Assembly (NCBI GenBank): GCA_011033025.1
Contig: WFMF01000249.1
Coordinates: 1 to 64,000 of the forward strand
From: Beroe forskalii
Lineage: Eukaryota > Ctenophora > Nuda > Beroida > Beroidae
Length of the DNA: 64,000 nucleotides
Direction of reading: 5' to 3'
Part shown: piece after piece, positions 3,541 to 63,599 of the stretch
Layout of the letters: every line of letters begins with the position of its first letter
Numbering within the stretch: the stretch's first letter is position 1
Program-made: the position numbers and the translations under genes
Notes under the pieces: generated by a model
The model's database searches: none
Seen by the model: only the letters and a program-made list of their open reading frames with translations
Told to the model about the DNA's origin: nothing

Positions 3541-4644
3541 GCCGTTTGCTCTGTCCTTCCAATTTAGCACAGGTTGCAATTGTTCTCTTGAGCAACTCCT
3601 CGGCAGTGAGTTCAGGTGCACCCTTCTTACTGGCAGGAGATGAGGAGGCTGCGGCTTTAGGAGCCTTGTTAGAGGGAGCAGTGTGAGGAGTCATAGAGGT
3701 AACAGGTGCAGGTTTTGATGTGGCAGGAGGTTGGAGGACTGAAGGAGTAGGTTGAGGGGCTGCGGCTAGTGTACTGCTTGTGGTGACAGCTGGAGCAGGT
3801 GCACTGTGGTTGCGGATCGTCGGGGAGTTGTTGCACCAAACTTCGCCTCTTGAGATGTAGAAATGTTGCTCTGGATGAGCACTTCTCTTCGCTTTACCAA
3901 TCTTCTTCGCTCCGCTCTCTCCTCATGAGTCAAGTCTGGTGCAACAAACACTCGCCGGGTTGATGGAATGTCCCGCAATCTCTTCCCACAGTTCCGTAAG
4001 CGGACAGCTGCATCACCACTTGTTAGACAGACTTTGATGGGACGGGGTCTGTCTGTGCTCTTCCTCCCCAACCTTTCACAATAGCTGATGTGGGGCTTTT
4101 CTCCAACATTACTGAACATATCAACGACTGCTTTCTCCGCTTCAACATTGTCATCTTCATCCACCCCGAACAGAATAATGTTCTTTCCTCTGTTCTCTGT
4201 CTTCACAACATTCTCCACAACAGCAGCAATGTCCTGGGCAGAAACTATCGGCACTTGAGTACTGAGACTAGAGGCAACTGCGTCACTGTAACTCTTCAGC
4301 TCCGATTTCAGTGTTGTCTGTAAGTTACTCACGGTTTCACTCTGGCTTTCACAAAACTGTCTTCTTTGATTCTGTAACTCGTCCTTCTGTAGACTGATAA
4401 CTTCTCCTTTCAGTTGATCGATCTTTCCCATTGACATCCTCAAAGTATCATAACACAGCTTCAGCTGCTGTAGAGTTTCTACCAACCACATTGACACGAC
4501 CTCCTTCTTATAATCCGTACCCGCAAACACATTTTGAGGCATTTTAGTGATATCAGGACATTTCGTTCGAAGCGAAAACTTATGTAACATGGTAGAAACA
4601 TCAAACAAGACATTCTGAGCATTTTCCAATGTATACTGGTTCAT
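3541..4644 (-). mobile_element. LINE ORF1 protein, full-length-like with one frameshift
   Basis: Reads from an ATG at 4644 downward. The first 160 residues are a coiled-coil-like region. A non-LTR ORF1 RNA-recognition-like core follows: NIILFGVDEDDN, then CERLGRKSTDRPRPIKV, then DIPSTRRVFVAPDLT and ERAERRRLVKRR. This order is typical of ORF1 proteins of invertebrate LINEs. The first frame ends near 3766. A Pro/Ala-rich tail continues in another frame to a stop near 3541 and ends TIATCAKLEGQSKRR, so one frameshift near 3830 separates them. No ORF2 lies downstream on this strand. A domesticated host gene is a less likely alternative. Confidence 0.72.
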
Positions 4645-4661
4645 GGTGACTGAAGATTGTC

Positions 4662-5021
4662 TTGTACACGCTCATACACAGTAGCTGTTTGGAGCTAGTG
4701 AAAATTATAAAACAAGAGGAGCCTGTGTCTCTGTACCAAATTCTTAACAGATCAAAACGCAATACAAACCGATTTATAACTCCTGTCCCTTCTAAGAATT
4801 TCACATATAGAGCCCCTTGGCTGTGGAATTGCTTCACTCAAATTCTGGAATTAGGGAAATTTGGCTTAGATAGCGATGAGAATTTGATAAAAAGTCTGCT
4901 GAAAAGGTCTCTCCTAGAGGTACAAAACGACAACTTGGACTCCTGGAGCAACGAAAACTTTCTGGAGTTTGCTCCAATTGAGCTCACAAAGACAACCTGT
5001 AGCTCATCTGACCAATGTTGA
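4662..5021 (+). mobile_element. LINE ORF2 C-terminal tail
   Basis: About 119 codons. The centre, TNRFITPVPSKNFTYRAPWL, then WNCF, matches the conserved tail after the reverse transcriptase in many invertebrate LINEs (R.....P.......FSYRAP.LWN). The endonuclease and reverse transcriptase are absent, as expected of a 5'-truncated copy on the plus strand. It sits head to head with the ORF1 element at 3541-4644, 17 bp away, so two insertions or an inversion created the junction. Confidence 0.65.
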
Positions 5022-7002
5022 TGCCGTTATTTAATTCAAACTCAATGTAGCAATAAACAGGTTAAGAAGAGGGTCGACCATGGCACAGGTGGAAGGTGGC
5101 TTACTGAATTGGAACGAATATGTGTTGTAAGGTATAAGAAACTAACAGCACTTGAGAATCAAGTGCAACAACTTTCATGTTATAATGAGAGTTGTGAAAG
5201 TTTATGAGAGTCGTACATGAATGTCGTACATGATGAGTTGTACGGGATAAGGCTTTATCTCACTACTATAGACAAAGGTGTCTATTCAATTAATATACTC
5301 TTGTAAAGATTATAATCACGATTGTGAATAATGATAAAAATTGGCCCTGATTGGTGTGGCAGGTGGTCCCCAGGGGCACTCTTAAGCATACAGCAACTGT
5401 GTCCTTTCTCCAGCCACATATACTGCTACACTAATCAATTGGTCCCTGAAACGGAACTGGTCAACTAAACCGTGACTTTTAGCGAATTCATTGGACCAGT
5501 TTCAAATAAGCCTTATTAATTATTTCATGTAAATGTTATGAAGTAGGTCTCTCTATACACTTGGTGTTCCCAAGGGTGCATACTTTACTGCCATGCCATG
5601 AAGTATGTGCTCTACAAAGGGGTCTGGTATCATTCTCCTTTGTATGGCAGACCAAGCTCAAGAGTTATCTATTCCATGGTAAAACATTATATGTCAAGCC
5701 ATGATTCATTCAAATAGACCTAAATTGGTCTGATGAATTATAACGGTGCCTATTGACACAATACAGATAATGCAACAGTCCTCCAGATATAGTGATTGAA
5801 ACTACTTGAAGCTTACTTAAGATTTTACAAATATTACCTGGATAATGATGTCACTGTAAACCATTCTTAGATTATTAAATTATCTGTATCTATCTGATGG
5901 ATCCTAGTCTTAGATGCCTAATACGAAAGATAGTATCTTCCTTAAATATTAATATGAATAGTAGAATTGGGTAGCGTTATGCCCTCATCATTCTTTTGCG
6001 TGTGTTTTTGATTGTAAGTTGTGGAGATCAATAAAAAACTTTGTTTACTTAAAACTTTGTTTACTTGTATTTCAGTGTACCATAAGCAGGTAACAAACGG
6101 TGTGTGATGCGCTTATCAGGTATTAGCAGAGAGATAAAAACGCAACGAATGCAAAATGGTAATGATATGGTTGGATATAATATGGGTAAGTTGGACAGTG
6201 GGCTAAGTTTTATAGCAGTAAGAGGGTTCATAATGCAACCAGGGGTTGCCAATGTAACTGCCCCTTCCAGAATGAAACAAAATTATTCCATGATGGTCCC
6301 AAGGAACCTCGGAGGGATCTGAACTTTAACAAGTTGTATGAAGAGAAAATCTTATCAGGGGTTCTTGAGTGACCTTTGAGAGTTTGAGGGAGGAAGCCAT
6401 ATTGGTTGTTTTGTAGTACAAATTGAGTACTGACTACCAGGTTGTACCCATGTTGTTAAAGTATAAAATATGTACCTGTGATATGGGTTGATCATTCCTT
6501 TGATGACAGTCTTCAAGTTAATGTACCTGAATTATAATAAATTAAGTAAAAAGATTAAACACCCCAAAAGCTGAGGTAGGTATTAGACTGAAGATGCCTG
6601 CACACCACTCATCTTGGTGTGACTCATTTAGATCCTGCTGCTCTCAACATTGCATTACCTAAAGGGATCATGTTGGTGTTCAAGTATGGAGTTGGAGAAA
6701 AGTCTTGCAGATTGATGTCTTGAAGAAAGATTTCTTTTCAATTCAAATAAGATTAAAGAATAGTACAGATATAGAAAGAGGGGCCTAGGGTGGTTATAAT
6801 GTAAAATTAAAAGGTAATATACTGTAAGGGGTTGGATAGTGAAGTTATGATACTTAGCTGGTGAGTGATACTAGAGAGTACCCAGCAGGTGGAAGGTGTG
6901 GATGATACCAACTGCATGGGGAAGTGCAGTTGACACAATCAGGAGGGGGAGGTGGGTGAAGCCCCAACTGGAAAGAACCAGGTCCCTTCCCCAAAAGGCA
7001 AA
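5022..7002. other. Gene-free interval with old repeat debris
   Basis: No host exon seen. The phrase GTACCCAGCAGGTG near 6872 also occurs near 3309 on the same strand, which suggests a diverged repeat family. Short open frames near 6061-6322 have no recognisable features. Confidence 0.4.
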
Positions 7003-19305: not shown

Positions 19306-19425
19306 TCGTCAGGGTGAGTTACGTGGGTTAGACTTGCGTGTGGGCTTATAACGTGGGTTCGGACTACGTGAGGGCAAGTTACGTGGGTCCAAACTGCCTT
19401 TGGGCAAGTAACATGGGTTCAAACA
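19306..19425 (+). repeat. Degenerate tandem repeat of about 31 bp
   Basis: Four diverged copies of a unit built on ACGTGGGTT..GACT.CGTG.GGGCAAGTT. The open frame on the other strand through this stretch is a by-product of the repeat. Confidence 0.65.
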
Positions 19426-19442
19426 TACATATGTCAAGATAT

Positions 19443-19587
19443 CACCACCAAAACCGTTGGACGGTTGGTCTAGTAACCCCCCGCGGGTTTGGATGTGACA
19501 ACGGAACCTGAAAAGAGACAAAATGGGCTGATCACATCCAAACCAGCGGGGGGTTACTAGACCAACCGTCCAACGGTTTTGGTGGTG
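19443..19587. repeat. Hairpin element with about 58-bp arms
   Basis: CACCACCAAAACCGTTGGAC on the left has its reverse complement ending at 19587. The arms continue through GGTCTAGTAACCCCCCGC and a TTTGGATGTGA stretch, with a spacer of about 35 bp. Arm identity is near complete, so the insertion is young or maintained. Confidence 0.85.
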
Positions 19588-19885
19588 TATTATGTGATCA
19601 ATTTTTGACCATTTTCAATCCCCCCTCTCTGCTCTCCCTCGTAAACAAAGCCTAACCTCATGATCATGTTGAGATTATAATTATCACGTAATTATGGCTA
19701 TCCCCCATGAACGTTTGAGTAGGCAACGAAGAAAATGGGCTGGGCAGTATAAAAACGTTGGATAATATTGATGAAAAATATGTTGAGGAAAGTTTTCAAA
19801 AATTTTGCTGAATATGTTACCTTTGAGTAAGTTTTTTGGAATTTAATTTGCCAAAAAATGCCGATATAATTTAGCCCAAAATTGG

Positions 19886-25300: not shown

Positions 25301-28300
25301 ACACAACCAAACTTAGTATAGTAGTACTATGGATATAAATTTCAGGCAGAATTAGTCAAAATTCATTTTAATGATAAAAACTTGAGTCAATTTAAAAATG
25401 ATATTTCCACTTCTTTATTTGTCCCAAATGTCCAAGCTGTCAAAATTGTCTCAAATGACATTCCCAAACTCAACAAAGTAAAATGGGACAGGGACAATTG
25501 GGACAGTGACAGTCCCCTAATATACTTCGAGTTGCTCGAATGTACCGTATTATTGTAACTTCTTCCCACATTTGAGTTGCCGAACAGCCGCGACATTAGG
25601 GTGTTACTTCTGAAAGTCGGGAGATTCTGTTACACCCTACTGCGACATACGACCATATGAGTTTCGTAGCACTCTAACTTCCGCACTAAAACTGTTTGTG
25701 TCTGGGCACGTTCTCAGTGCAGTACACGCCTGTCTCGTGATACCGTCTCATCATCTTAGCCCCCTCCTCCAACGGCTGGATCTGCTGTATCAAGAACGTA
25801 TCACTACGACCTGCCTCGCAGCCCATGGTAGCGTTAGGCATGGAAGTCACCGGGATTTGACCCGAGTAAAACGCCAGGATCCCGATCATCTGATCGTCGA
25901 TCCCGACGGGGGGTTGCCGGGTTTGGTCCCAAACTCTGACCAGCTCCCGGATGGCACAAACTGAGTAAATTACTCCGGATCCGTCACAGAATATCGGGTA
26001 AACTTTGGGCCTCCACATTTCTTCCGAAACCTTCCATTTGCCCACCCGATCTGTTTCGTACACATGGCAACTGCTGCCCCCGTAAAACATCGGATTAGCG
26101 GACTTGTTCTTCATGTATTCGTTAATAAAGGAGTTAGCACCACTCACATTTAGGATCGAATCCTCATCGAGGACTATGAGGAAATTAAAGGAGAAGTTGT
26201 CGAGGAGGTACCTCAGTGCCCACATAACCTTGTAAATCTGCCCCAGATAAACATCCAGAACGGGCGCTAACAAGATGTCCCGGTGTGTTGCCCGTTCCTC
26301 GTCCACGATAGAGCGCGGGTAGCTGGGGCTGAGCCCGGAGAGGAAGAAGTGAGTCCACAGAACGGGCTTCCCGCCTTCATCCCGCCAGTCGTAGGAGAGC
26401 CAGCTTGATTCCCGCAGGAACCTGCGGGTTTCCAGCCGTTCTATCGGTGTTTTGGTGAGAACGATGAGGTTAAAGTGGGGTTTACTCTGCAAAATGCTGA
26501 GATTTTTATAACCAGTGTGGTTACACGCACAGTAGAGGCCTAAGAGGATCAAGAAGATTCCGATGAATGATTTCACGGTTACATGCTTGTTGAGTCGTCG
26601 TACTGGAATCATTCTCCGGCTGATCATTCGAACCTTTTTGTTAGGAGATAAGGAATTGAACGGTTTCACTCAAAGAAAAATGAAAATGTTCTTGCTTAGA
26701 ATACACTGAATTTTATATTTTAGAATACACTGAATTCTATATTTATACTTATTTATAGAAGGCATGGCTGCCGCCTGGTAAGTAAAGGTGATAGCTATTC
26801 ACCACTGACTGGCAAAGTGTCAGTCAGTGGCGTGACATAACTCAAAAAGCTTAGTGACTGCGCATCATTGCTCAAAAGCAACACGTTGAAATGGTAGTAA
26901 AACTGTAGTTGCAAAGATAGTCGATTCAATCATTCACGTTTCTTAAGGTTATCAAGGATTATTTTACACGCAGGGCTAATAGAGTAGTAACTAGTAGGTA
27001 CGTCAATCACAATTCTATGTTTAGGTACAGCTCAATGCTGTTACTCGATTACTTCAATGAAATTGTGACCTGCAACCACAATGCACCGCCACGACCGGGC
27101 TGCTATTGAAATTCATATCGGTACTTCTAATCATATATTTTAAGGTACTTTTGTGGCTGCGAAACTCAAGCAATTTTTATTGTTTTTGGCAATAAACTTA
27201 CTACATTTAGTTATAGTTGAGATAATTGCATTAATTGGTTCACAACCGGTGTTCAAATTAAATGTATGAAATACGATTTTGCTTTAGTAGATAATGCCGT
27301 TAGAATTAAGTCGATATCATTATTACTCTTTGAGTTATCAAGATAATTACTTGAATTGACCAATTATTTAATTAAGCGGTTGACAACTGTACTAAAATTA
27401 AACTCATAAAACTAAATTCTAGCTCTAGTAATAAATAAAGTTAAATAATATGATGAATTCAGCATTAATTTTATACCATAGCATAGAATCATATAACAAT
27501 AAAAATAAACGATTTAATCAGAAAAAGGACGAGTAGTGGTCACTGGTCACGAACATCTTCAATTGTAACAATTAAAGCATCGTGTTCTTGTGACATTTTA
27601 ATGTATGAATCATTCATCATAGTCATACTTTCTGTGAAGTTTATTGGTTAGAACATACAACTGACACACAACATTGAACATATTCATATCACTTATGACT
27701 AAGTTCTTATCTTGACTAAATCAATAATTTCAATTATTTATTGATTTAGTTAAGATAAGAACTAAGTGATATGAATATGTTGTGTCAGTTCTATGTTCTA
27801 ACCAATAAACTTCTCAGAATGTATGACTATGATGAATGATATATACAAGGAAATATCACAAGAACACGACGTTTTAATTGTTACAATTGAAGATGTTCGT
27901 AACCACTCTACTCGTCCTATTTTTGATTAAATTGACGAAGAAATCCCTATTCTACACACAATAAACGAGTATCCCCAGATGTTAGCAACTTTTGTCTTGT
28001 GGTGTCATTCTTTCATGAAATGTTTTTGTATTCTTATTAAGAGTACAGTCACGTGACAACTTTTCATTCCATTTCTTACAAATTGTTTCATGAGCACTAT
28101 GAAACTTGGTCTTACGAATACTCTTGGAAGAGTTAGACCAATGATAAGGCAAAATTTTGTTCGAATAACTTAATTAAGAGTATTCATAAGACCACTCCAT
28201 ATTGGTCGTAGAGTTAATTCGTAACGTAAAAAGTGAAATGTTTAGTTGTCACGTGACTGTACAGTGTACAAAAAACCGTTCATGTAAGAGCGCCTGGAGC

Positions 28301-52161: not shown

Positions 52162-55100
52162 ATGTCCAAATCAGAGAATAAATTGAAAGAACTCAGTCTT
52201 GAGCAGAAATACAAAGTACTGTTGAAGAAAGTCCAAAGTGGAACAGTCGTTGAATATGCAACAAATTATCTATCGAAAGGTATCGTTCATTTCTTTTTTT
52301 GCACGATGTCATGTTTCAATAACTTAGAAATCTGTATCTCTTTATGAATAGCTTTGCAGGTTTTGAGTGTGATGATTTCTTCTGTCCATTGTGGCTAATG
52401 GTTTTAGGGACTACGGGTGCAACTGAGAAAAACTGTGGTAATTAAATAGCTACCAATGAAGCTTTCCTGGAACATAAATACCTGTCAGAGAATTGAATAT
52501 GATTACATAGTTTAGCTGATGAATGAGGATTAGTATAAAGTCCTGGTTAAATCCCGAATGATATTAAGTTATTACTGTAACTCTAATAAAACCTCCAGAT
52601 GTTGACGTTAGTTCAAAGACAGATGTGGCTGTCACCATCGCTGCCATCTTAGGACAAGAAGATCTAGTCAAGCAGGTTATTTAGTAAGTTGAGTTGATCT
52701 CCTCTTACTGGATCAACCTTTAAACTTGAATCGTGCCTTAAAAGCATAATTTCATTTATTATTACCCTACAGTGTAATTACTTTTCGAATTTTTGAGCAA
52801 TATTAATCATGTAATATCACCGTACCCAGCAGTTGAATTACTGTCAAGTGTGTAATTACTATACCTCAACTGTTGAATTGAATTACTACCAATTTTCTGA
52901 AACGGCCATTCGCACGATTCTAACCTATTTGCTATCTCTGTGTGGATGTAAATAGGAGAATAATAAGCGCCCAAGATATCTGTTATCGCACTTTTCATAT
53001 AAAAAACGTCTCGATATAATCTATTCTTAACCGTATAATATACTGTAAAACAAGATAAAATAGCGATAAGGAGCACAAAATGTTCGGTACGATATATGTT
53101 ATATTCTTCATGGCACATTCGGTAGCACAAGATAAAGTAAATATGAGCACAATGTATAAAATACGATATATCTAAACGATATTGTAGGGCAACACAAGAT
53201 AAAGATAAAATAGATAGAAGGAACACTATCGTATACACCTAAATGGCCGTAGATACTAAAAGCAGGAACTAGCGAAACCACCCCGAAACAAGCCGAAACA
53301 AGCGGAACGACCCGAAACCACCCCGAACCAACCCAAAAACCTTCCGAAACAAGCCGAAACAAGGCGAAACGAGCCGAAACAAGCCGAAACAGCCCGAAAC
53401 AAGCGAAACAAGCGAAACAACCCGAAACAAGCGAATCAACCCGAAACAAGCCGAAACAAGCAGTTTTGCATTCTACACTTGTTTCGGCTTGTTTCAGCTT
53501 GTTTCGGGTTGTTTCGGGTTGTTCCAGTTTTTAGTAAAATTTTGGCTTGATTCGGGGTTGTTTCGGGTTGTTTCGTGTTTTTGCTGCCATATCAAGCGAA
53601 ACAAGGCGAAACAAGCGAACCAACCCGAAACAAGGCGAATCAACCCGAAACAAACGGAAAATGCAAAACTGCTTGTAGTTCATGTCGAATCGGCTTGATT
53701 CGGGTTGTTTCGGGTTGATTCGCTTGTTTCGGGTTGATTCGCTTATTCCGGGTTGATTCGCTTGTTTCGGGTTGATTCGCTTGTTTCGGGTTGATTTGCC
53801 TTGTTTCGGGTTGATTTGCCTTGTTTCGGGTTGTTGTGGGTTGATTCAACTTGTTTCGCCGAAACAAGCCGAAACAAGCCGAAACAAGCGAATCAACCCG
53901 AAATTTCGCCTTGTTTCGGCGAAACACGTTGAATCAACCCACAACAACCCTAAACAAGGCAAATCAACCCGAAACAAGCGGAATCAACACAGAAAAAAGC
54001 AAATCAACCCCAAACAACCCGAATCAACACGATAAACTGTGAATTCAAGGAAAGCCCATGATAAAAGTTTGTATAACTGTAGTACTGTATTAGTAGCTTG
54101 ACTTCCATCCTCCAGCATGTTGCAGAGTTGACACTGACATGAGCTATTTCACTTCTTGTGTGCAAGTAAGAATTTAAATTCCTCATGGATATGTCTAGTG
54201 TCCACACTCCACGGCCCCGCTCAAATATAGCATCCCCAATCCATACGTGTATCAATTTATAATACCTGGAGAGCGAATTTTGGGGCAGATTTTCTATTCT
54301 GGGCAATTACTTCACTGCGATATATCCATTTAAATCCAATACCTATTCATTCTCGGGAGCTTTTTTGAGAAATTTGCTCTTCTAGAAATGAAATGTTGAA
54401 AGTTTGAGTATAAATCTTCAAAGAATTTTAATACGAACAGAAAGTTCTTGTGGCAAAAAATTACTATCCAATGCAAGAGCGGGGTTTGGAGAAATAACAG
54501 CACTATTATATCACTATTAACATGGATTGAACACTGAGTTCGACTTAAAATCGTAAATCAGGAACATGACATGTATTAATGACTTGTGGCAGCTTGAGCT
54601 ACGAAGTACGAGCCCGACGGCCAAGTTCAAGCTCGTTACTGATATGTATCTTCATAAATCATAGGGCAGAGGCATCAGATTGTAAAGAAAGTTGAAAGTG
54701 CAAAAGAAAGAAAGATCCTCAGTGGCCGGGTAATTGGGGAACCAAGGAGGAAGTAAAATGATTTGCAATGGGAACCCACGTGCTGCAATGGGAACCCACG
54801 TGCTGCAATGGGAACCCACGTGACCGCAATTATCCCGCTCCAGCCTAAGCAACGTCACGTGACTACCACGTTACCGCGCGCATATCATGTAAAACATGCG
54901 GCACGCAGGTCACGTGACCGCGCTTGATATTCGATACACCTCGGGGAAGAGCGGTGCAATGTTATTGTATGATACACCTAGCATGTAGGATATAGAGTGA
55001 TGGGGTGCAATGTAAACCTATGATATATTATATATCTATGTAAATACAGTGTATCGGAATGTGAGTGCAATGTAAACGTATGTTACACTTACACTGAACA

Positions 55101-58100
55101 TGTCGGTTGATACACAGGAGCGCTCAGCCTTTGCAGTTTTACAGAAAAGTGTGCAACAAGCGTACGATGGAGACTGTAGTAAAACAGTAAAGTAATGAAT
55201 AAATTTAAATGTCAAGAAGTATTACAAGGAAATTTCATTCATTGAAAGACATTCCGACCTCCTCAACTGTCAAATTGTTTAGTGTACGTGCATGTTTTAT
55301 AGTAGTTAAGTACTAGGTACCTATAGTTTACGTTCACTCTAGTCGAAGCAGCGGGGAACGGACATTTCATCTCTCGACACTTCATCTCACGACATTTCAT
55401 CTCGCGACATTTCATCTCCGACACTTCATCTCAAAGTACGACATTTCATCCCCAGGGTTTTTGAAGTACGACGTTTCATCTCCAGGGTGCGACGTTTCAT
55501 CTCAAAGGGTACGACACTTCATCTCCTACTGTAATTTGATTGTACTATAAAGTACAACATTTCATCTCCAGGGTGCGACGTTTCATCTCAAAAGGTACGG
55601 CACTTCATCTCCTACTGTAATTTGATTGTACTATGAAGTACGACATTTCATCTCCAGAGTGCGACGTTTCATCTCAAAGGGTACGACACTTCATCTCTAA
55701 CTGTAACTTGATTGCACTGTAAGGTGCTACATTTCATCAGGGTACGACACTTCATCTCAGACTGCGACATTTCATCTTAGGGTACGACACTTCATCTCAG
55801 GAATACGACACTTCATTCATCTCAAGTTACGACACTTCATCTCAGACTGCGACACTTCATCTCAGACTGCGACACTTCATCTCAGACATTCTTCATCTCA
55901 AATTACGACACTTCATCTCAGTACGACACTTCATCTCAGACTGGGAACACTTCATCTCAGACTGCGACATTTCATCTTCAGCGAAAGGGCGACACTTCAT
56001 CTGAAGATGTACGACACTTCATCTCAGACGACGCTTCATCTCTCAGGGTACGACACTTCATCTCAGACTGCGAAATTCATCTCAGGTACATTTTTCATCT
56101 CAGGGTTCGACACTTCATTTCAGGGTACCCTAAGATGAAGTGTCTTTATACACCCTGAGATGAAGTGTCAGTCTGAGATGAAATGTCGCACCCAGAGATG
56201 AAGTGTCGCAGTCTGAGATGAAGTGTCGTACCCTGAGATGAAGTGTCGCAGTCTGAGATGAAGTCATCATCTCAGACTGCGACACTTCATCTCTGGGTGC
56301 GACATTTCATCTTAGGGTACCACACTTCATCTTAGCTTAGGGTACGACACTTCATCTCAGGGTACGACACTTCATCTCAGGGTTCGACACTTCATTTCAG
56401 GGTACCCTAAGATGAAGTGTCATACCCTGAGATGAAGTGTCGCAGTCTGAGATGAAATGTCGCACCCAGAGATGAAGTGTCGCAGTCTGAGATGAAGTGT
56501 CGTACCTGAGATGACCCTGAGATGAAGTGTCAGTCTGAGATAAGCTTCATCTCAGACTGCGACACTTCATCTCTGGGTGCCATGACATTTCATCTTAGGG
56601 TACCACACTTCATCATTGAAGTGTCACCTGAGATGAAGTGTCACACCTAAAATTCTGAGATGAAGTGTCGCAGTCTGAGATGAAGTGTCCTACCCTGAGA
56701 TGAAATGTCGCAATTTTCAATGCAATCAAGTTACAGTTAAAGATGAAGTGTCGTACGCTTTGAGATGAAACGTCGCACTCTGGAGATGAAACGTCGTACT
56801 TCAAAAACCCTGGAGATGAAATGTCGTACTTTGAGATGAATTGTCGCAGTCTGAGATGAAATGTCTCACCAGAGAAGTGTCGTAGCCTGAGATGAAGTGT
56901 CGCAGTCTGAGATGAAGTGTCGTACCCTGAGATGAAGTGTTATACCCTGAGATGAAGTGCCGCAGTCTGAGATGAAGTGTCGTACCCTGAGATTAAGTGT
57001 CGTACCCTGAGATGAAGTGTCGTACCCTGAGATGAAGTGTCGCAGTCTGAGATGAAATGTCGCACCCAGAGATGAAGTGTCGTAGCCCGAAATGAAATGT
57101 CGTACCCTGAGATGAAATGTCGTACCCAGAGATGAAGTGTCGCAGTCTGAGATGAAGTGTCGTACCCTGAGATGAAGTGTCGTAGCCTGAGATGAAATGT
57201 TGCACCCAGAGATGAAATGTCGCAGTCTTAGATGAAGTGTCGTACATAGAGATGAAGTGTCGCAGTCTGAGATGAAGTGTCGTACCCTGAGATGAAATGT
57301 CGCAGTCTGAGATAAAGTGTCGCAGTCTGAGATGAAATGTCGCACCCAGAGATGAAGTGTCGTAGCCTGAGATGAAATGTCGTACCCTGAGATGAAATGT
57401 CGTACCATGAGATGAAGTGTTGCAGTCTGAGATGAAGTGTCGTACCCTGAGATGAAGTGTCGTAGCCTGAGATGAAATGTCGTAGCCTGAGATGAAATGT
57501 CGCAGTCTGAGATAAAATGTTATACCCAGACATGAAATGACGTACCCAGAGATGAAGTGTCGTACCCTGAGATGAAGTGTCGCAGTCTGAGATGTAGTGT
57601 TGCAGTCTGAGATGAAATGTCGTACGTAGAGATGAAATGTTGTACCCGGAGATGAAGTGTCGTACCCTGAGATGAAACGTCGCGCCCTGGAGATAAAACG
57701 TCGTACTTCAAAAACTCCTGGGGATGAAATGTCGTACTTTGAGATGGAGTGTCGTAGATGAAATGTCGCGAGATGAAATGTCGGGAGATGAAATGTCCGT
57801 TCCCGCTGGTTCGACTAGAGTGAACGTAAATTATAGGTACCTAGTACCTACCTACTATAAAACATGCACGTACACTAAACAATTTGACAGTTGAGGAGGT
57901 CGGAATGTCTTTCAATGAATGAAATTTCCTTGTAATACTTCTTGACATTTAAATTTATTCATTACTTTTACTGTTTTACTACAGTCTCCATCGTACGCTT
58001 GTTGCACACTTTTCGTAAAGCTGCAAAGGCTGAGCGCTCCTGTTTATCAACCGACATGTTCAGTGTAAGTGTAACATACGTTTACATTGCACTCACATTC

Positions 58101-61100
58101 CGATACACTGTATTTACATAGATATATAATATATCATAGGTTTACATCGCACCCCTTCACTCTATATCCTACATGCTAGGTGTATCATACAATAACATTG
58201 CACCGCTCTTCCCCGAGGTGTATCGAATATCAAGCGCGGTCACGTGACCTGCGTGCCGCATGTTTTACATGATATGCGCGCGGTAACGTGGTAGTCACGT
58301 GACGTTGCTTAGGCTGGAGCGGGATAATTGCGGTCACGTGGGTTCCCATTGCAGCACGTGGGTTCCCATTGCAGCACGTGGGTTCCCATTGCAAATCATT
58401 TTACTTCCTCCTTGGTTCCCCAATTGCATATATGGTGGTTTTAATCTACAAGAGAAATAGGGAAATAGGTAGTAAAAACATAAGAATTTGTTTATTCTTG
58501 TAGAGAAAATCCTCCAAACTGGGGCTACAGCCTACGGCAAACTACTTAAGCTGTTACTTTCGACCAATGAAGACCCATAAACGTTAGAGCTAAGGCAGTC
58601 TCACAAGCTCCATAAAAAGAGTAAAGGAGCAAAGGTGCTTTGAACTTTGAAACTATGCATGGTAACACTTTTTTTTTTGACCCATAACGTTCTTAAAACA
58701 ACGTTATGATTGCATCACTTTACTTGGGCCCGAATGTGCAAATTCTGATCCATTAAAACAATCATAATGTAATTCACAACGAAACATCTGACATTTGTTT
58801 GAAATGATAGAAGATTTTGCCGAGGGTAGCATCGCACACAAATAATAAGTCGCACACGAACAATATGCCCCCTGACACTGTCAGTGACAGTATAAATTCT
58901 TGCGCCTATTGTTCGCGCGCGACGCATAACATGCCCGGGCAGGTTCAGCGGCAGTAAGGGAAATGTCGCAAATGTGTCATTGGTTGGGTGAGAATCCTTC
59001 ATTTCGTTGCAGTACAGTAAGTTCATTGCTCATACGGCCCGTGCACTTATCTCCATCGCTTTCATGTAATTCGACCGTACGTTCATCTTATTCACCTCTA
59101 TGTCTTTATGTGAAAATGCAAGAACTCGAGAAGCATCTCTAAATTGGCATCTCTATAGGTGCCACGTAGCCCAGTAAATTCGCCCGGTAAACTTGAATGA
59201 ATTGATATCGAGTGGGACAATTTCCGAATTGATTCGAGTGTTGTCCGAATTGAGTCGTGTCATTTTGAGACTAAAAACACGGATGACGATGATACTGATA
59301 ATACGAACATAAGTTTTAGTAAATGTCATAACTTTAAACACCAATTCATGAGTTATATAGTCAAACATGAATGATAACTGACCCGCAAATAATTTTCTCC
59401 ATTACGAATTGTGAGTTGCATTTCATTTTGTTGCAAATTAAGGGAATAACATGATTAATTATAATGATTAATGACGTTGCATTTAAAATGATCATTTTTA
59501 CCACGAATAAGGATATCATTAGTATCATTTTGTTGTCAGCTTGAGAAAGATCATAATTGTCATAATTTGATGACTGTTAGCAAAACAAGACTGTTAAGTA
59601 CCGTGCCTTAATGAGTTAACGAGTGATAGGAACCTGAAAACATTCGACCTCTCGAGTGATTACGTTATTATGTAATTATCAGTCAGACACAGTTGATCAG
59701 TTATCAAGAATAGGGTGGTGATGAATGGTGAAAAGAGATAACGTAGCCAGAGTATTTTATCTACATACTACAGTACGGAAGTGCTAATAAGGATCCGCAG
59801 TCAACTCTAAATAGTTAGTTGGAAAGGGAAAAATAGAGATCTGTGAGATCAGGATATGCATAATATACAAATATGTGCAGTGTACGCAGTGTTTCACAGT
59901 TGACAGGTAAAATGAGCCGACTGAGTAGGGATTGGAGTAATAAAGTCGCCTAACATGAAAAGGAGATACAATTATAAGTTCATAAGATTTGTGTATACAC
60001 ATCTCTAAGAGTGCCTAGATAGCTAGATGACTAGAAGAACATATTTCTTGACAAACTGAATATCAATAAATATCCTATTAGTTATGTCCCATAATTATAC
60101 GGGTTGATTCACCTTGACTCTGACACTTATTCCGGATTGATCATGGCCGGCTTCAGATTGATTCGGCTCGTTTCGATATTTATTCGGGTTGAATCGTTTG
60201 ATTCGGTTGATTTACTCGAAACAAGCCGAAACAAGCGAAACAAGCTGAAACAAGCGAATCAACCCGAAACAAGCCGAAACAAGCGAATCAACCCGAAACA
60301 AGCCGAAACAAGCCGAAACAAGCCGAAACAAGCGAATCAACCCGAAACAAGCCGAAACAAGTGGAAAATGCAAAACTGCTTGTTTCGAGTTGATTCGCTT
60401 GTTTCGGGTTGTTTCGCTTTTTTTCGTTGAGTCGATTGTTTTGGGTTGTTTCGGCTTGTTTCGGGGTGATTCGGCTTGTTTCGGGGTGATTCGGCTTGTT
60501 TCGGGTTGTTCCAGGTTTTAGTAAAAAAATTGGCTTGATTCGGGCTTGATTCGGGTTGTTTCGTGTTTTTTCTGTTGTATCAAGCGAAACAAGGCGAACC
60601 AACCCGAAACAAGCGAATCAACCCGAAACAAGCTGAAACAAGCCGAAACAAGCCGAAACAAGTGGAAAATACAAAACTGCTTGTTTCGGGTTGTTTCGGG
60701 TTGATTCGCCTGTTTCGGCTTGTTTCGCTTGTTTCGCTTGTTTTGGGTTGTTTCGGGTTGTTTCGGCTCGTTTCGCCTTGTTTCGGCTTGTTTCGGAAGG
60801 TTTTTGGGTTGGTTCGGGGTGGTTTCGGGTCGTTCCGCTTGTTTCGGCTTGTTTCGGGGTGGTTTCGCTAGTTCCTGCTTTTAGTATCTACGCCTAAATG
60901 GCGCCACCCAGACGGGCTTGATAACTCCATCTGTGTTTCAATGTTTATTTATCTTGTGTTAGAGATATAACGCAGACTTGTGGCGCCATATATATGGTGT
61001 ATTGCTCCGTTTTATCAAATTCAACTACATTATTTCTGTGCGCCGTCATTTCTATCTGTCAGTGTTTGTTACTTATAATAGATCGGGATGAAGATAATGA

Positions 61101-63599
61101 TTATGGCACAAAACTTATTGTTCAACTGAGGAGTACATACATACATTTTGATGCACTCTAAAGATTTAGCTGACTACATTCACATGTGATCGTGTTTTTT
61201 TTTAAGGGCAGATTCTATACGAGAACCGCATAAGATTGTAGCTCTCGAGTCAGTTGTTATTAATGTTTGTGGTGTGAATTGTTTTGTTTTCGATTGAGTA
61301 CTTAACTTTCATGGTTCATTTGTTTATGGCAATGAAAGATCAAAACAAAATTTTTGTTAAGTACATATACATACACTACGTCATACACTAACAGAATGTA
61401 TCAATGCTGGGCGCTGGTTGTATCATTTGGACTTTTGAACTTATTCGCTGAATTGACCCAGATACGATGATGATGTGATTCTGACTTATACAAATCACTG
61501 GAAAATTTGTCCAAAATTCTCGCCTGTTTCAATTCTCGCCTGTTTCAATTATTCATAAAACATTGAGTTCGAATACCTAAGTTTCAAACCGTCTACTTTG
61601 ATTGATGCGTATATGGCAGGGTAATAATACAGTAAATACACACTTTGGTGTGTCAATTACCATCGTAATTGCACTCGCAAGCTCGTGCAATTACTCCAAT
61701 AAATGCACTCGCAAGCTCGTGCATTTATTGCATGAATTCCACTCGCAAGCTCGTGGAATTAATGTGGTAATTACACACCCAAGTGTGTATTTACCGTATA
61801 TAATTCATTGCAATATCATTAAAATATAGACCTTTGTAGAATGTACATTATATATTATCATATAATAACATTAAAATGCTGTGGTTGAGGCTATCGTCCA
61901 AGGACTACCGCGAAGAGAGTCAGCTTTGATACTTCAATGTAGTATGATAATATGGTTGGATTATTGAATGTGATTGGTGTATGATATTCAACTCTACAGC
62001 ATGAACCACATCACTTCAACAGGTTGCTGATGAGCTGGTTGCTGTGATCTGCAAATTCATTTCATCTGGGCCGACAAGTTGTTTAAGAGAGCTTTCTAAC
62101 CACTACATTCACTCTATCAAACAAAACAAGATAACTACCGGCAAGTATGTAATTATTACTATTTTAGTGATAAAATTTTTATAAGTCATGAGTGTGAAAT
62201 AAGGTATATTTTGAGATTTTGGTCAAAAAATTGCTTCAAAATTATTAGTTCCATTTTTCAGCTTCGAAGTTCTGGGTCATGTGTTGCTTCTTCTGGCTGA
62301 ACGAAAAGAGAAGATATCGTGCGACGGAGAAGAGTTTACCTCTTTGGAGTACAGGTCCCATCTGGTTAACAACATTTGCAACATCAGGTAGGTTAACAAC
62401 ATCTGGTTAACAACATATTTTGTAACATCAGGTAGGTCAAAAACATTTAGTTAACAACATCTAACGACAATAACCACATGATTTTAGAAAACTTCTGATA
62501 TTATAATTTCACGTATATCAGTCAGTCTTTTCAAACTGTAACATCCGGTAGATCGTGGATACAATCACTGAATGCATTAAGCATTTCTCATCCAATGCTA
62601 ACCCACTGGCACTCATGGTCAGTATACAATTTTGTAGCGTTTGTAGCAAAATAATCCCCTGTATTCAATATCCCACCTTTAGTTACAGAGTACCTGTCAA
62701 ATAAATCTATTGATGTATTGTGACATTTGAAACTTTCAGATGGAATTCTAGGATCGTCCTGGCCCTTGGTCAAGCCCTGTTGGACCTGTGTCTATCCGAT
62801 AAGGAGATGTCCTTTGTGATAGACAAGATCACGTCCAGCTTGTGTCTCCTCCAGCTGGTTGAGGTTCCGCAGATGGTTCACTCCCTCCTCGTGGCGGCTT
62901 CCAAGGTTGGTTTCGGGGAAACCCGAACTACCCCGCGTACGAGTGGATATCAAGTTTGGCTGATAGGGGTTCAATTTTGGGGCTTATCATTATCGGGTTT
63001 TTCGGCATTAGCTATATAAACGTATATAATAAACGTAGATTAACTTTATTTTATCTCTCAGGGATGTCATAAGAACGTGGTCCTTGGTGTTCTCAAATTT
63101 TTCAATGACACTGATGCTCTTCAACGGTTAGTACCTGAATCGAAGTAAGATTAAGTACCTAATCATACATCATAACTTCATAAGAATGCTTAGAACCTAT
63201 TTATAACCTGTTAATGATTGTACCGATTTTAATCATTTATTTGACCCAATGTTCTGTACCTATATCACGTTTGATAGCGTGATCGTATCAAGATAGTATA
63301 AGGAAATGAACCTAATCAATTTCAACCTATCCAATTTAGATGAGACCTTCGATGCTCATTGCTGCATATTATCTTTCTTGTCGTTTTCACGGGAATAAAA
63401 GTATTTCACCCCTTCGCCGTTAATTATATTGTCCATAATTGATTGACTATAAAACAGTCCTGACTAAATGAAAATCCTTAGTTCCTATACTTTTAGGAAT
63501 GACGAAGACGGGAACATGGCGAGTGACCCTGCCAGTGACCTGTCCCAAGCAGAGGGGACTTCTCTCCTACACATTTCCTTTGCTGTGAAGCACGACCAG
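52162..63599 (+). CDS. FANCI: Fanconi anaemia group I protein, N-terminal part (gene continues past the window)
   Basis: Seven exons: 52162-52279, 52599-52675, 62023-62144, 62262-62387, 62740-62905, 63062-63126, 63497-63599. Phases agree throughout; about 259 residues so far. FANCI pairs with FANCD2 as a DNA clamp in interstrand-crosslink repair in the nucleus. The match is best in exons 5-7. LLQLVEVPQMVHSLLVAASK corresponds to human NLQEIPPLVYQLLVLSSKG. GVLKFFNDTDA corresponds to GIIAFFSALDK, and TSLLHISFAVKHD to TIILHIVFAIKLD. Exons 2-3 (GQEDLVKQVADELVAVI) fit human SGDLQKEIASEIIGLL. Helical, alpha-solenoid-like. The donor of exon 2 (CAG/GTTATT) is poor, and intron 2 is 9.3 kb because of a large mobile element. 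The next exon was not found before the window ends. Confidence 0.85.
53238..53247 (+). repeat. Target-site duplication, left copy (CCTAAATGGC)
   Basis: Ten bases immediately left of the terminal inverted repeat. They are identical to 60893-60902 on the other side. Confidence 0.85.
54732..58425. mobile_element. 3.7-kb inner foldback with long arms
   Basis: Arms of about 640 bp (54732-55370 and 57795-58425) are reverse complements with few differences. They start AATTGGGGAACCAAGGAGG and include a threefold 20-bp GGGAACCCACGTG.TGCAAT repeat, several CACGTG and GTCACGTGAC sites, and ends at TTCACTCTAGTCGAA. The loop is a 2.4-kb tandem array. No target duplication is evident at its own borders, so it may be the core of the surrounding element and not a separate insertion. 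Confidence 0.85.
55360..57800. repeat. 20-bp tandem array with orientation switches
   Basis: Roughly 110-120 copies of a 20-bp unit such as GACACTTCATCTCAGACTGC. Units run one way from 55360 to about 56130 and the opposite way from about 56680 to 57790, with several short flips in between (around 56140, 56260, 56410, 56550). The second base set alternates between CAGTCTGA, TACCCTGA, CACCCAGA and TAGCCTGA, giving a higher-order pattern. Because 20 is not a multiple of 3 and the unit lacks stops on the minus strand, long open frames appear in all three minus frames; these are not genes. Confidence 0.93.
60893..60902 (+). repeat. Target-site duplication, right copy (CCTAAATGGC)
   Basis: Identical to 53238-53247, immediately right of the terminal inverted repeat. 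Confidence 0.85.
60903..61632. other. FANCI intron 2, remainder
   Basis: AT-rich; no exon or repeat recognised apart from a duplicated TTCTCGCCTGTTTCAATT near 61517-61550. Confidence 0.45.
61633..61793. repeat. Compound palindrome 3 (three hairpins within an outer stem)
   Basis: The outer stem is TAAATACACACTTTGGTGTG...AATTACCA with TGGTAATTACACACCCAAGT...ATTTA. Inside lie three hairpins: 61665-61694 (GTAATTG/CAATTAC), 61698-61729 (AATAAATG/CATTTATT) and 61733-61762 (ATGAATTC/GGAATTAAT). All three share the identical tip CACTCGCAAGCTCGTG while their stems differ. Located in FANCI intron 2, about 230 bp before exon 3. Confidence 0.85.

What the first reader, a model, noticed from the sequence alone, without database searches (positions are those of the whole stretch)
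53248..60892. Giant foldback transposon with intact 10-bp target duplication in FANCI intron 2
Ends, arms and the CCTAAATGGC duplication are all clean, so the insertion is recent. The element carries no visible transposase and is built from minisatellite blocks in alternating orientation around a second foldback. Such a nested, all-repeat architecture is unlike the usual MITE; it recalls Drosophila foldback and Galileo elements, though the 10-bp duplication points to Mutator-like transposition.
Basis: partly seen in the sequence, partly recalled or inferred. Interest (0 to 1): 0.75.

Follow-up and report, generated by a model that had tools for sequence, protein, structure and literature searches.

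The report
Nested foldback transposons in FANCI intron
A stretch that looks like one giant hairpin-shaped jumping element is two ordinary ones, one inside the other, sitting inside a third repeat within an intron of a DNA-repair gene.

Summary
The structure is real, but it is not one giant element. The outer element (53248-60892) belongs to a dispersed family: 127 exact copies of its 20-bp end in the 216-Mb assembly. Of 33 complete copies examined, 29 have an exact 10-bp target duplication, 2 have 9 bp, 2 none. 23 of 33 are 3.70-4.03 kb; the window copy is 7,645 bp because a second, unrelated foldback element (54735-58422) lies in it, seen in no other of the 33. The inner family duplicates AT at A|AT|T-like sites in 10 of 11 copies, as ISL2EU transposons do. 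The outer element itself sits in a third repeat of about 1.4 kb. No partner transposase was found: 0 of 46 MULE-domain hits lie within 16 kb of an exact outer end. Best reading: a non-autonomous, probably Mutator-type foldback family like Tm1 and Muta1 derivatives, recently inserted, then hit by an ISL2EU-like foldback. New member of a known kind.

The parts
53238..53247 (.). left copy of the 10-bp target duplication CCTAAATGGC of the outer element
   Evidence: direct reading; exact repeat at 60893-60902; single in the 6 fetched paralogous empty sites, which were picked from exact matches
60893..60902 (.). right copy of the 10-bp target duplication
53248..60892 (.). outer foldback element, 7,645 bp as found; about 3,955 bp without the nested element and its AT duplication
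   Evidence: 127 exact end copies in the assembly; 33 complete copies compared
53248..54030 (+). left arm and subterminal zone: blocks of a decamer (CGAAACAAGC type) in alternating orientation; outer 285 bp pair with the right arm
   Evidence: inner border approximate
60160..60892 (-). right arm and subterminal zone, same decamer blocks inverted
   Evidence: inner border approximate
53521..53536 (+). internal degenerate copy of the terminus (GTTCCAGTTTTTAGTA)
   Evidence: motif scan: of 8 other copies scanned, 5 have two internal copies, 2 have one, 1 has none
60508..60523 (+). internal degenerate copy of the terminus (GTTCCAGGTTTTAGTA), direct repeat of the right end
   Evidence: motif scan, as above
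54031..54732 (.). non-minisatellite internal region of the outer element, left part
   Evidence: shared with other outer copies; one open frame tested (54007-54306, minus), no Pfam match over cut-off
58425..60159 (.). non-minisatellite internal region of the outer element, right part
   Evidence: 44 genomic matches, 94-100% identical, with 40 of 251 candidates scored; one open frame tested (58718-59029, minus), no Pfam match
54735..58422 (.). inner foldback element, separate family (TGGGGAACC...GGTTCCCCA), 3,688 bp, minisatellite core of 15-, 20- and 86-bp units
   Evidence: 41 end matches genome-wide; uninterrupted site in 7 of 7 other outer copies printed; in 1 of 33 outer copies, the window's
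54733..54734 (.). AT target duplication of the inner element, left
   Evidence: AT on both sides in 10 of 11 inner copies with both ends readable
58423..58424 (.). AT target duplication of the inner element, right
52745..53247 (.). left piece of the third, host repeat (about 1.4 kb in all) into which the outer element inserted
   Evidence: aligned to L102 and L103 across the joined site
60903..61804 (.). right piece of the third repeat

Best explanation
The feature is three transposable or repeat elements nested in a FANCI intron. First a dispersed repeat of about 1.4 kb was there. A non-autonomous, probably Mutator-type foldback transposon of about 3.95 kb then inserted into it, with duplication of 10 bp of target (shown: ends, duplication, paralogous empty sites). 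Later a second non-autonomous foldback element with ISL2EU-like target choice inserted into the first one's middle at AT (shown: uninterrupted sites in sibling copies). The outer element has no transposase that I could find; it is inferred to be moved in trans by a MULE transposase that binds the 20-bp terminus and, also by inference, the decamer arrays and internal terminus-like motifs in its arms.
For: 127 exact ends, control 0. 29 of 33 complete copies with exact 10-bp and 2 of 33 with 9-bp duplications. Joined 30-bp target exact at 51 places, 162 within 3 mismatches; 6 fetched exact ones align through the junction over 350 bp with one CCTAAATGGC. Window copy equals the family plus one clean insert, and the inner sequence is in 1 of 33 copies; sibling site uninterrupted in 7 of 7 printed; inner family with AT on both sides in 10 of 11. 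Recent: the window copy differs from the family majority at 0.39% of internal sites, the least of 33; exact duplications in 298 bp of 30 copies where 5.2 mismatches would be expected if they were as old as nearest-neighbour splits. MULE domains exist in the genome, 46 hits. MULEs have 8-11 bp duplications and long inverted repeats (PMC6446971, passages); 10 of 12 long-repeat MULE families of one mosquito carry 9-15 bp subterminal tandem repeats (PMC5225508, passages).
Against: No autonomous element with these ends was found: of 46 MULE hits only one lies within 20 kb of any of the 127 exact ends, about 16.5 kb away and on the outer side of that end; two of 35 DDE_Tnp_4 hits are 16-17 kb from an outer end, also on its outer side. 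Elements with diverged ends were not searched. 2 of 33 copies have no duplication (L019, L022). Most duplications are 10 bp, in the upper part of the 8-11 bp range. 41 of the 127 ends are unpaired; interiors of 20 were asked for, 18 came back, and 6 of these 18 did not match the family interior and were not identified.
Confidence: 0.75

Rival explanations
1. One giant nested foldback element of 7.6 kb that moves as a unit.
For: The inner foldback lies well inside and the whole is flanked by one intact 10-bp duplication.
Against: Of 33 complete copies only the window copy has inner-element sequence; 7 of 7 siblings printed keep the uninterrupted site; other long copies carry different inserts. 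Three of the 33 (L019, L020, L037) could not be read at that site in the alignment. The inner element has its own family, ends and AT duplication.
Confidence: 0.02
2. A P-superfamily (Galileo/Foldback-like) transposase moves the outer element.
For: Arm anatomy resembles Galileo and Drosophila FB (recalled; Galileo arms also described in passages and a listing).
Against: Duplications are 9-10 bp, where Galileo gives 7 and P gives 8 (recalled). No PF21787 match in this genome, but no control genome rang either, so that search proves little.
Confidence: 0.08
3. The mover is a Rehavkus-type transposase, the MULE sister group with minisatellites and a PHD finger.
For: Rehavkus is listed with 9-bp duplications, 26-400 bp inverted repeats and a minisatellite before the 3' repeat (PMC6446971, passages).
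Against: Duplications here are 10 bp in 29 of 33; minisatellites lie in both arms; no transposase or PHD finger is present to test.
Confidence: 0.1
4. An assembly artefact (false palindrome or misjoined repeat).
For: Long inverted repeats can mis-assemble.
Against: 31 of 33 copies lie in differing flanks, each exactly duplicated; the target exists uninterrupted elsewhere.
Confidence: 0.02

Closest known systems
Tm1 Mutator/Foldback family of root-knot nematodes (PMC3169594; abstract, section 9 and first part of the Discussion read)
   Same: Composite inverted repeats with variable numbers of a short unit (mostly 14 bp there, 10 bp here), non-autonomous majority, arms of one element about 93% identical, 9-bp duplications.
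   Different: Duplications here mostly 10 bp; Tm1 has a copy encoding a Phantom-like MULE transposase, none found here.
Muta1 and its derivatives, Aedes aegypti (PMC5225508; passages)
   Same: MULE with short subterminal tandem repeats in the inverted repeats, called there a type 2 foldback; many non-autonomous derivatives.
   Different: 8-9 bp duplications and 145-bp arms there; 9-10 bp and repeat zones of about 0.7-0.8 kb here; transposase known and active there.
Tetris foldback of Drosophila virilis (PMC4079207; passages)
   Same: Non-autonomous, tandem repeats inside the arms, 8-10 bp duplications, placed in Mutator from duplication length and earlier suggestions about foldbacks, transposase not found; internal repeats resemble part of the outer arm.
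   Different: 220-bp units and three structurally complete copies there; decamers and at least 33 complete copies here.
MULEs with multiple tandem inverted repeats in plants (PMC3310237; abstract only)
   Same: Extra copies of terminal sequence inside the arms.
   Different: Here the internal copies are short and degenerate.
ISL2EU group of the PHIS superfamily (PMC4482050; passages), for the inner element
   Same: AT duplication at A|AT|T-like targets.
   Different: No transposase seen in the copies, no YqaJ match in the genome, arms and core rich in minisatellite.

Membership tests
Mutator-like elements (MULE), non-autonomous, outer element | 8-11 bp target duplications | tested here: met
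   29 of 33 copies 10 bp, 2 of 33 9 bp, 2 of 33 none; empty sites
Mutator-like elements (MULE), non-autonomous, outer element | long inverted repeats with subterminal tandem repeats (common, not universal) | tested here: met
   285-bp outer arms, decamer arrays
Mutator-like elements (MULE), non-autonomous, outer element | mobilised by a MULE transposase; an autonomous relative shares the ends | tested here: inconclusive
   46 MULE hits in the genome, 0 within 16 kb of an exact end; copies with diverged ends were not searched
Rehavkus | 9-bp duplication, PHD-finger transposase, minisatellite before the 3' repeat | tested here: inconclusive
   duplication mostly 10 bp; no transposase to test; minisatellite in both arms
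Galileo / P superfamily foldbacks | 7-8 bp duplications (recalled) | tested here: not met
   9-10 bp
Galileo / P superfamily foldbacks | P-type transposase | tested here: inconclusive
   PF21787: 0 hits, but no control rang
ISL2EU (inner element) | AT duplication at A|AT|T | tested here: met
   AT on both sides in 10 of 11 copies with both ends readable; full A|AT|T in 4 of 11, W|AT|W in 10 of 11
ISL2EU (inner element) | DDE/THAP transposase and, in most, a YqaJ protein in autonomous copies | tested here: not met
   0 YqaJ matches in the genome while two control genomes rang; 0 of 35 DDE_Tnp_4 hits within 20 kb of any of 41 inner ends; so filed only as ISL2EU-like

The most novel reading that the evidence does not exclude
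In this one genome, foldback families of different superfamilies have independently acquired minisatellite arms: a family with 10-bp duplications, probably MULE-type (decamer), a family with AT duplications, ISL2EU-like (15/20-mer), and an apparent third element with GGAATACCC-type repeats around a MULE fragment (in L057; its borders are not proven). Minisatellite arms would then be a convergently selected feature, for example as arrays of transposase-binding sites or as a way round silencing or repair.
Probability: 0.25. Interest if true: 0.45.

Novelty: new member of a known kind. Interest (0 to 1): 0.22.

Why it matters
It adds a low-divergence foldback family with many complete copies, exact duplications and paralogous empty sites, a convenient substrate for asking how foldback arms arise and what moves them. 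It also shows how nested insertion can be mistaken for a giant complex element. Otherwise it is ordinary transposon biology in an intron.

Tried and rejected
Looked for coding capacity in the outer element and in its long copies. The extra DNA is nested inserts: 6.5 kb in the C203 copy with an 8-bp overlap at the insertion point; others with alignment overlaps of 2-12 bp, none in L017 and L019. Three open frames of long copies (L013, L016 twice) gave no Pfam match over cut-off, nor did the three outer-element frames tested. One frame of the inner minisatellite (window 56869-57519) passes the AIPR_N cut-off by 0.4 bits with no stretch passing on its own; I take this as repeats read as protein, which is a judgement.

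Took the MULE domain in the C558 copy of the inner family as a possible inner transposase, then set it aside: it lies between GGAATACCC-type repeats that are absent from the window's inner copy, and the inner element duplicates AT, not 8-11 bp. That it is a separate insert is likely, not proven; no clear duplication around it was found. A 4-bp AATT duplication for the inner element was rejected: the longest exact repeat is 2 bp in 10 of 11 copies once the terminal T and A are counted in the element.

Considered within-element homogenisation of the arms; rejected (94.9% within, 95.0% between). Searched unpaired ends for an autonomous partner: of 18 returned pieces 12 matched the family interior at least in part, 6 did not; the longest open frame in those 6 is 111 aa, and they were not searched against families.
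Full report
OBSERVATION. The sequence at 53248-60892 is as described: the 20-bp end CGTAGATACTAAAAGCAGGA at both termini in inverted orientation, CCTAAATGGC directly repeated outside, 285-bp arms 94% complementary, and a second inverted repeat inside with arms of 416 bp (99%) and 167 bp (98%). Tandem Repeats Finder reports decamer blocks in the outer arms and 15-, 20- and 86-bp units inside the inner element.

COPIES. The exact 20-mer occurs 127 times in the 216-Mb assembly (63 forward, 64 reverse; 0 for the pattern read backwards), listed in full by two split searches (64 + 63). I compared 33 complete copies: 31 fetched loci, the C203 copy and the window copy. 29 of 33 have an exact 10-bp duplication, 2 of 33 have 9 bp (L025, L026), 2 of 33 none (L019, L022). 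The right flank of L019 runs at once into sequence of another outer copy. Ten more facing pairs of ends, 3.9-5.3 kb apart, are listed but were not fetched; that leaves 41 of 127 ends unpaired. 23 of 33 copies are 3.70-4.03 kb, one is shorter (L020, 2.2 kb) and nine are longer; the longer ones carry inserts.

THE WINDOW COPY IS A NEST. Against a 3,949-bp copy (L018) the window copy aligns along its length except for one insert of about 3.69 kb. Seven other copies were printed at that site and all seven are uninterrupted: six read GGGTAATTGCAT and L015 reads GGGTAATTGAAT. The window reads GGGTAAT|TGGGGAACC...GGTTCCCCA|ATTGCAT. Inner-element sequence is in 1 of the 33 outer copies, the window's; three of the 33 (L019, L020, L037) could not be read at the site in the alignment. 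The inner element has 41 end matches of its own at up to 3 mismatches (23 forward, 18 reverse). These make 16 facing pairs; for C913 only one end was fetched and it is altered. Of the other 15, 11 had both ends readable with the 16-bp probe, and 10 of these 11 are flanked by AT on both sides; C215 is not. This is the target rule given for ISL2EU, A|AT|T (PMC4482050, passages), met in full in 4 of 11. Against membership: no YqaJ match in the genome, and 0 of 35 DDE_Tnp_4 hits within 20 kb of an inner end.

THE TARGET IS ALSO A REPEAT. The 30-bp joined flank occurs 162 times within 3 mismatches, 51 of them exact. Six exact places were fetched and all six align through the junction over 350 bp with a single CCTAAATGGC. 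Two longer pieces, 93% and 90% identical, place the borders of this repeat near window 52745 and 61804, about 1.4 kb without the insert.

GENE CONTEXT. Pieces of the plus strand from 52568, 61875, 62005, 62215, 62714 and 63468 onward, typed together as one query, align in order to Fanconi anemia group I chains (best E 3.6e-16; the 62714 piece alone 2e-6). A first piece (from 52159) did not align, and the piece before the insert gives only 14 aligned residues, so the exact intron number is not shown.

AGE AND DYNAMICS. Over the interior (positions 1001-3050 of L018), pairwise divergence among copies has median 2.6% and minimum 1.0% (494 pairs). The window copy differs from the column majority at 0.39% of sites, the least of 33 copies. 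The 30 copies with duplications and enough interior carry 298 duplicated bp, exact throughout, against 5.2 mismatches expected if duplications were as old as the nearest-neighbour split (Poisson P 0.005). So insertions look younger than the splits between the sequences that moved, which fits movement of already diverged elements. The copies were chosen by exact ends, which favours young ones, and the test is modest. Arm identity does not date insertion: left-right identity within elements equals that between elements.

MECHANISM. Shown: defined ends, duplications of mostly 10 bp, many dispersed copies, no coding capacity found. Inferred: a transposase supplied in trans, most likely MULE, because MULEs are described with 8-11 bp duplications (PMC6446971, passages) and 10 of 12 long-repeat mosquito families with 9-15 bp subterminal repeats (PMC5225508, passages). 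Degenerate copies of the terminus lie about 275 and 370 bp inside the ends of the window copy; of 8 other copies scanned 5 have two, 2 have one and 1 has none. By analogy with Galileo, for which the Tetris paper reports extra binding sites in the arms (passages), these and the decamers may be extra binding sites. 46 MULE domains were found in the genome. One is about 16.5 kb from an exact outer end, on that end's outer side; the other 45 are farther than 20 kb or on other contigs. The mover is therefore not identified.

COMPARISON. Tm1 and Muta1 derivatives are the closest described relatives in kind among what I read; Tetris and tandem-repeat MULEs share parts of the anatomy. Searches in the held library were.

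VERDICT. Observation confirmed; interpretation partly supported. A non-autonomous, probably Mutator-type foldback family, interrupted in this copy by an ISL2EU-like foldback, inside a third repeat.

Noticed in passing
window 52745-53247 + 60903-61804; L102, L103: A dispersed repeat of about 1.4 kb with 162 near-matches of one 30-mer, short hairpins near its right end, and in L102 a second copy starting directly after the first, head to tail. It might be Helitron-like; not classified.
   Followed up: partly
L057 about 4590-6632 (C558): A MULE-domain reading frame (290 aa, PF10551 E 1.2e-8) between GGAATACCC-type repeats, apparently a further insert in a copy of the inner family.
   Followed up: partly
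C203 copy (L016 926-7447): A 6.5-kb insert in an outer copy with an 8-bp overlap at its insertion point and two overlapping open frames; the look of a hAT-type protein is my impression, Pfam gave no match.
   Followed up: partly
window 19312-19614 and L048: A closely similar open frame (HHQNRWTVGLVTPRWFGCDQP...) followed by a short repeat occurs in the window and twice in L048 in part: probably another repeat family.
   Followed up: no
window 27512-27959: Two related stretches of a repeat into which the outer copy L012 is inserted; the L012 joined flank aligns to them through the junction.
   Followed up: no
L022, about position 2440 of L018: An unrelated 231-bp insert at almost the same place in an outer copy as the inner element in the window copy, with an 11-bp alignment overlap.
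   Followed up: no
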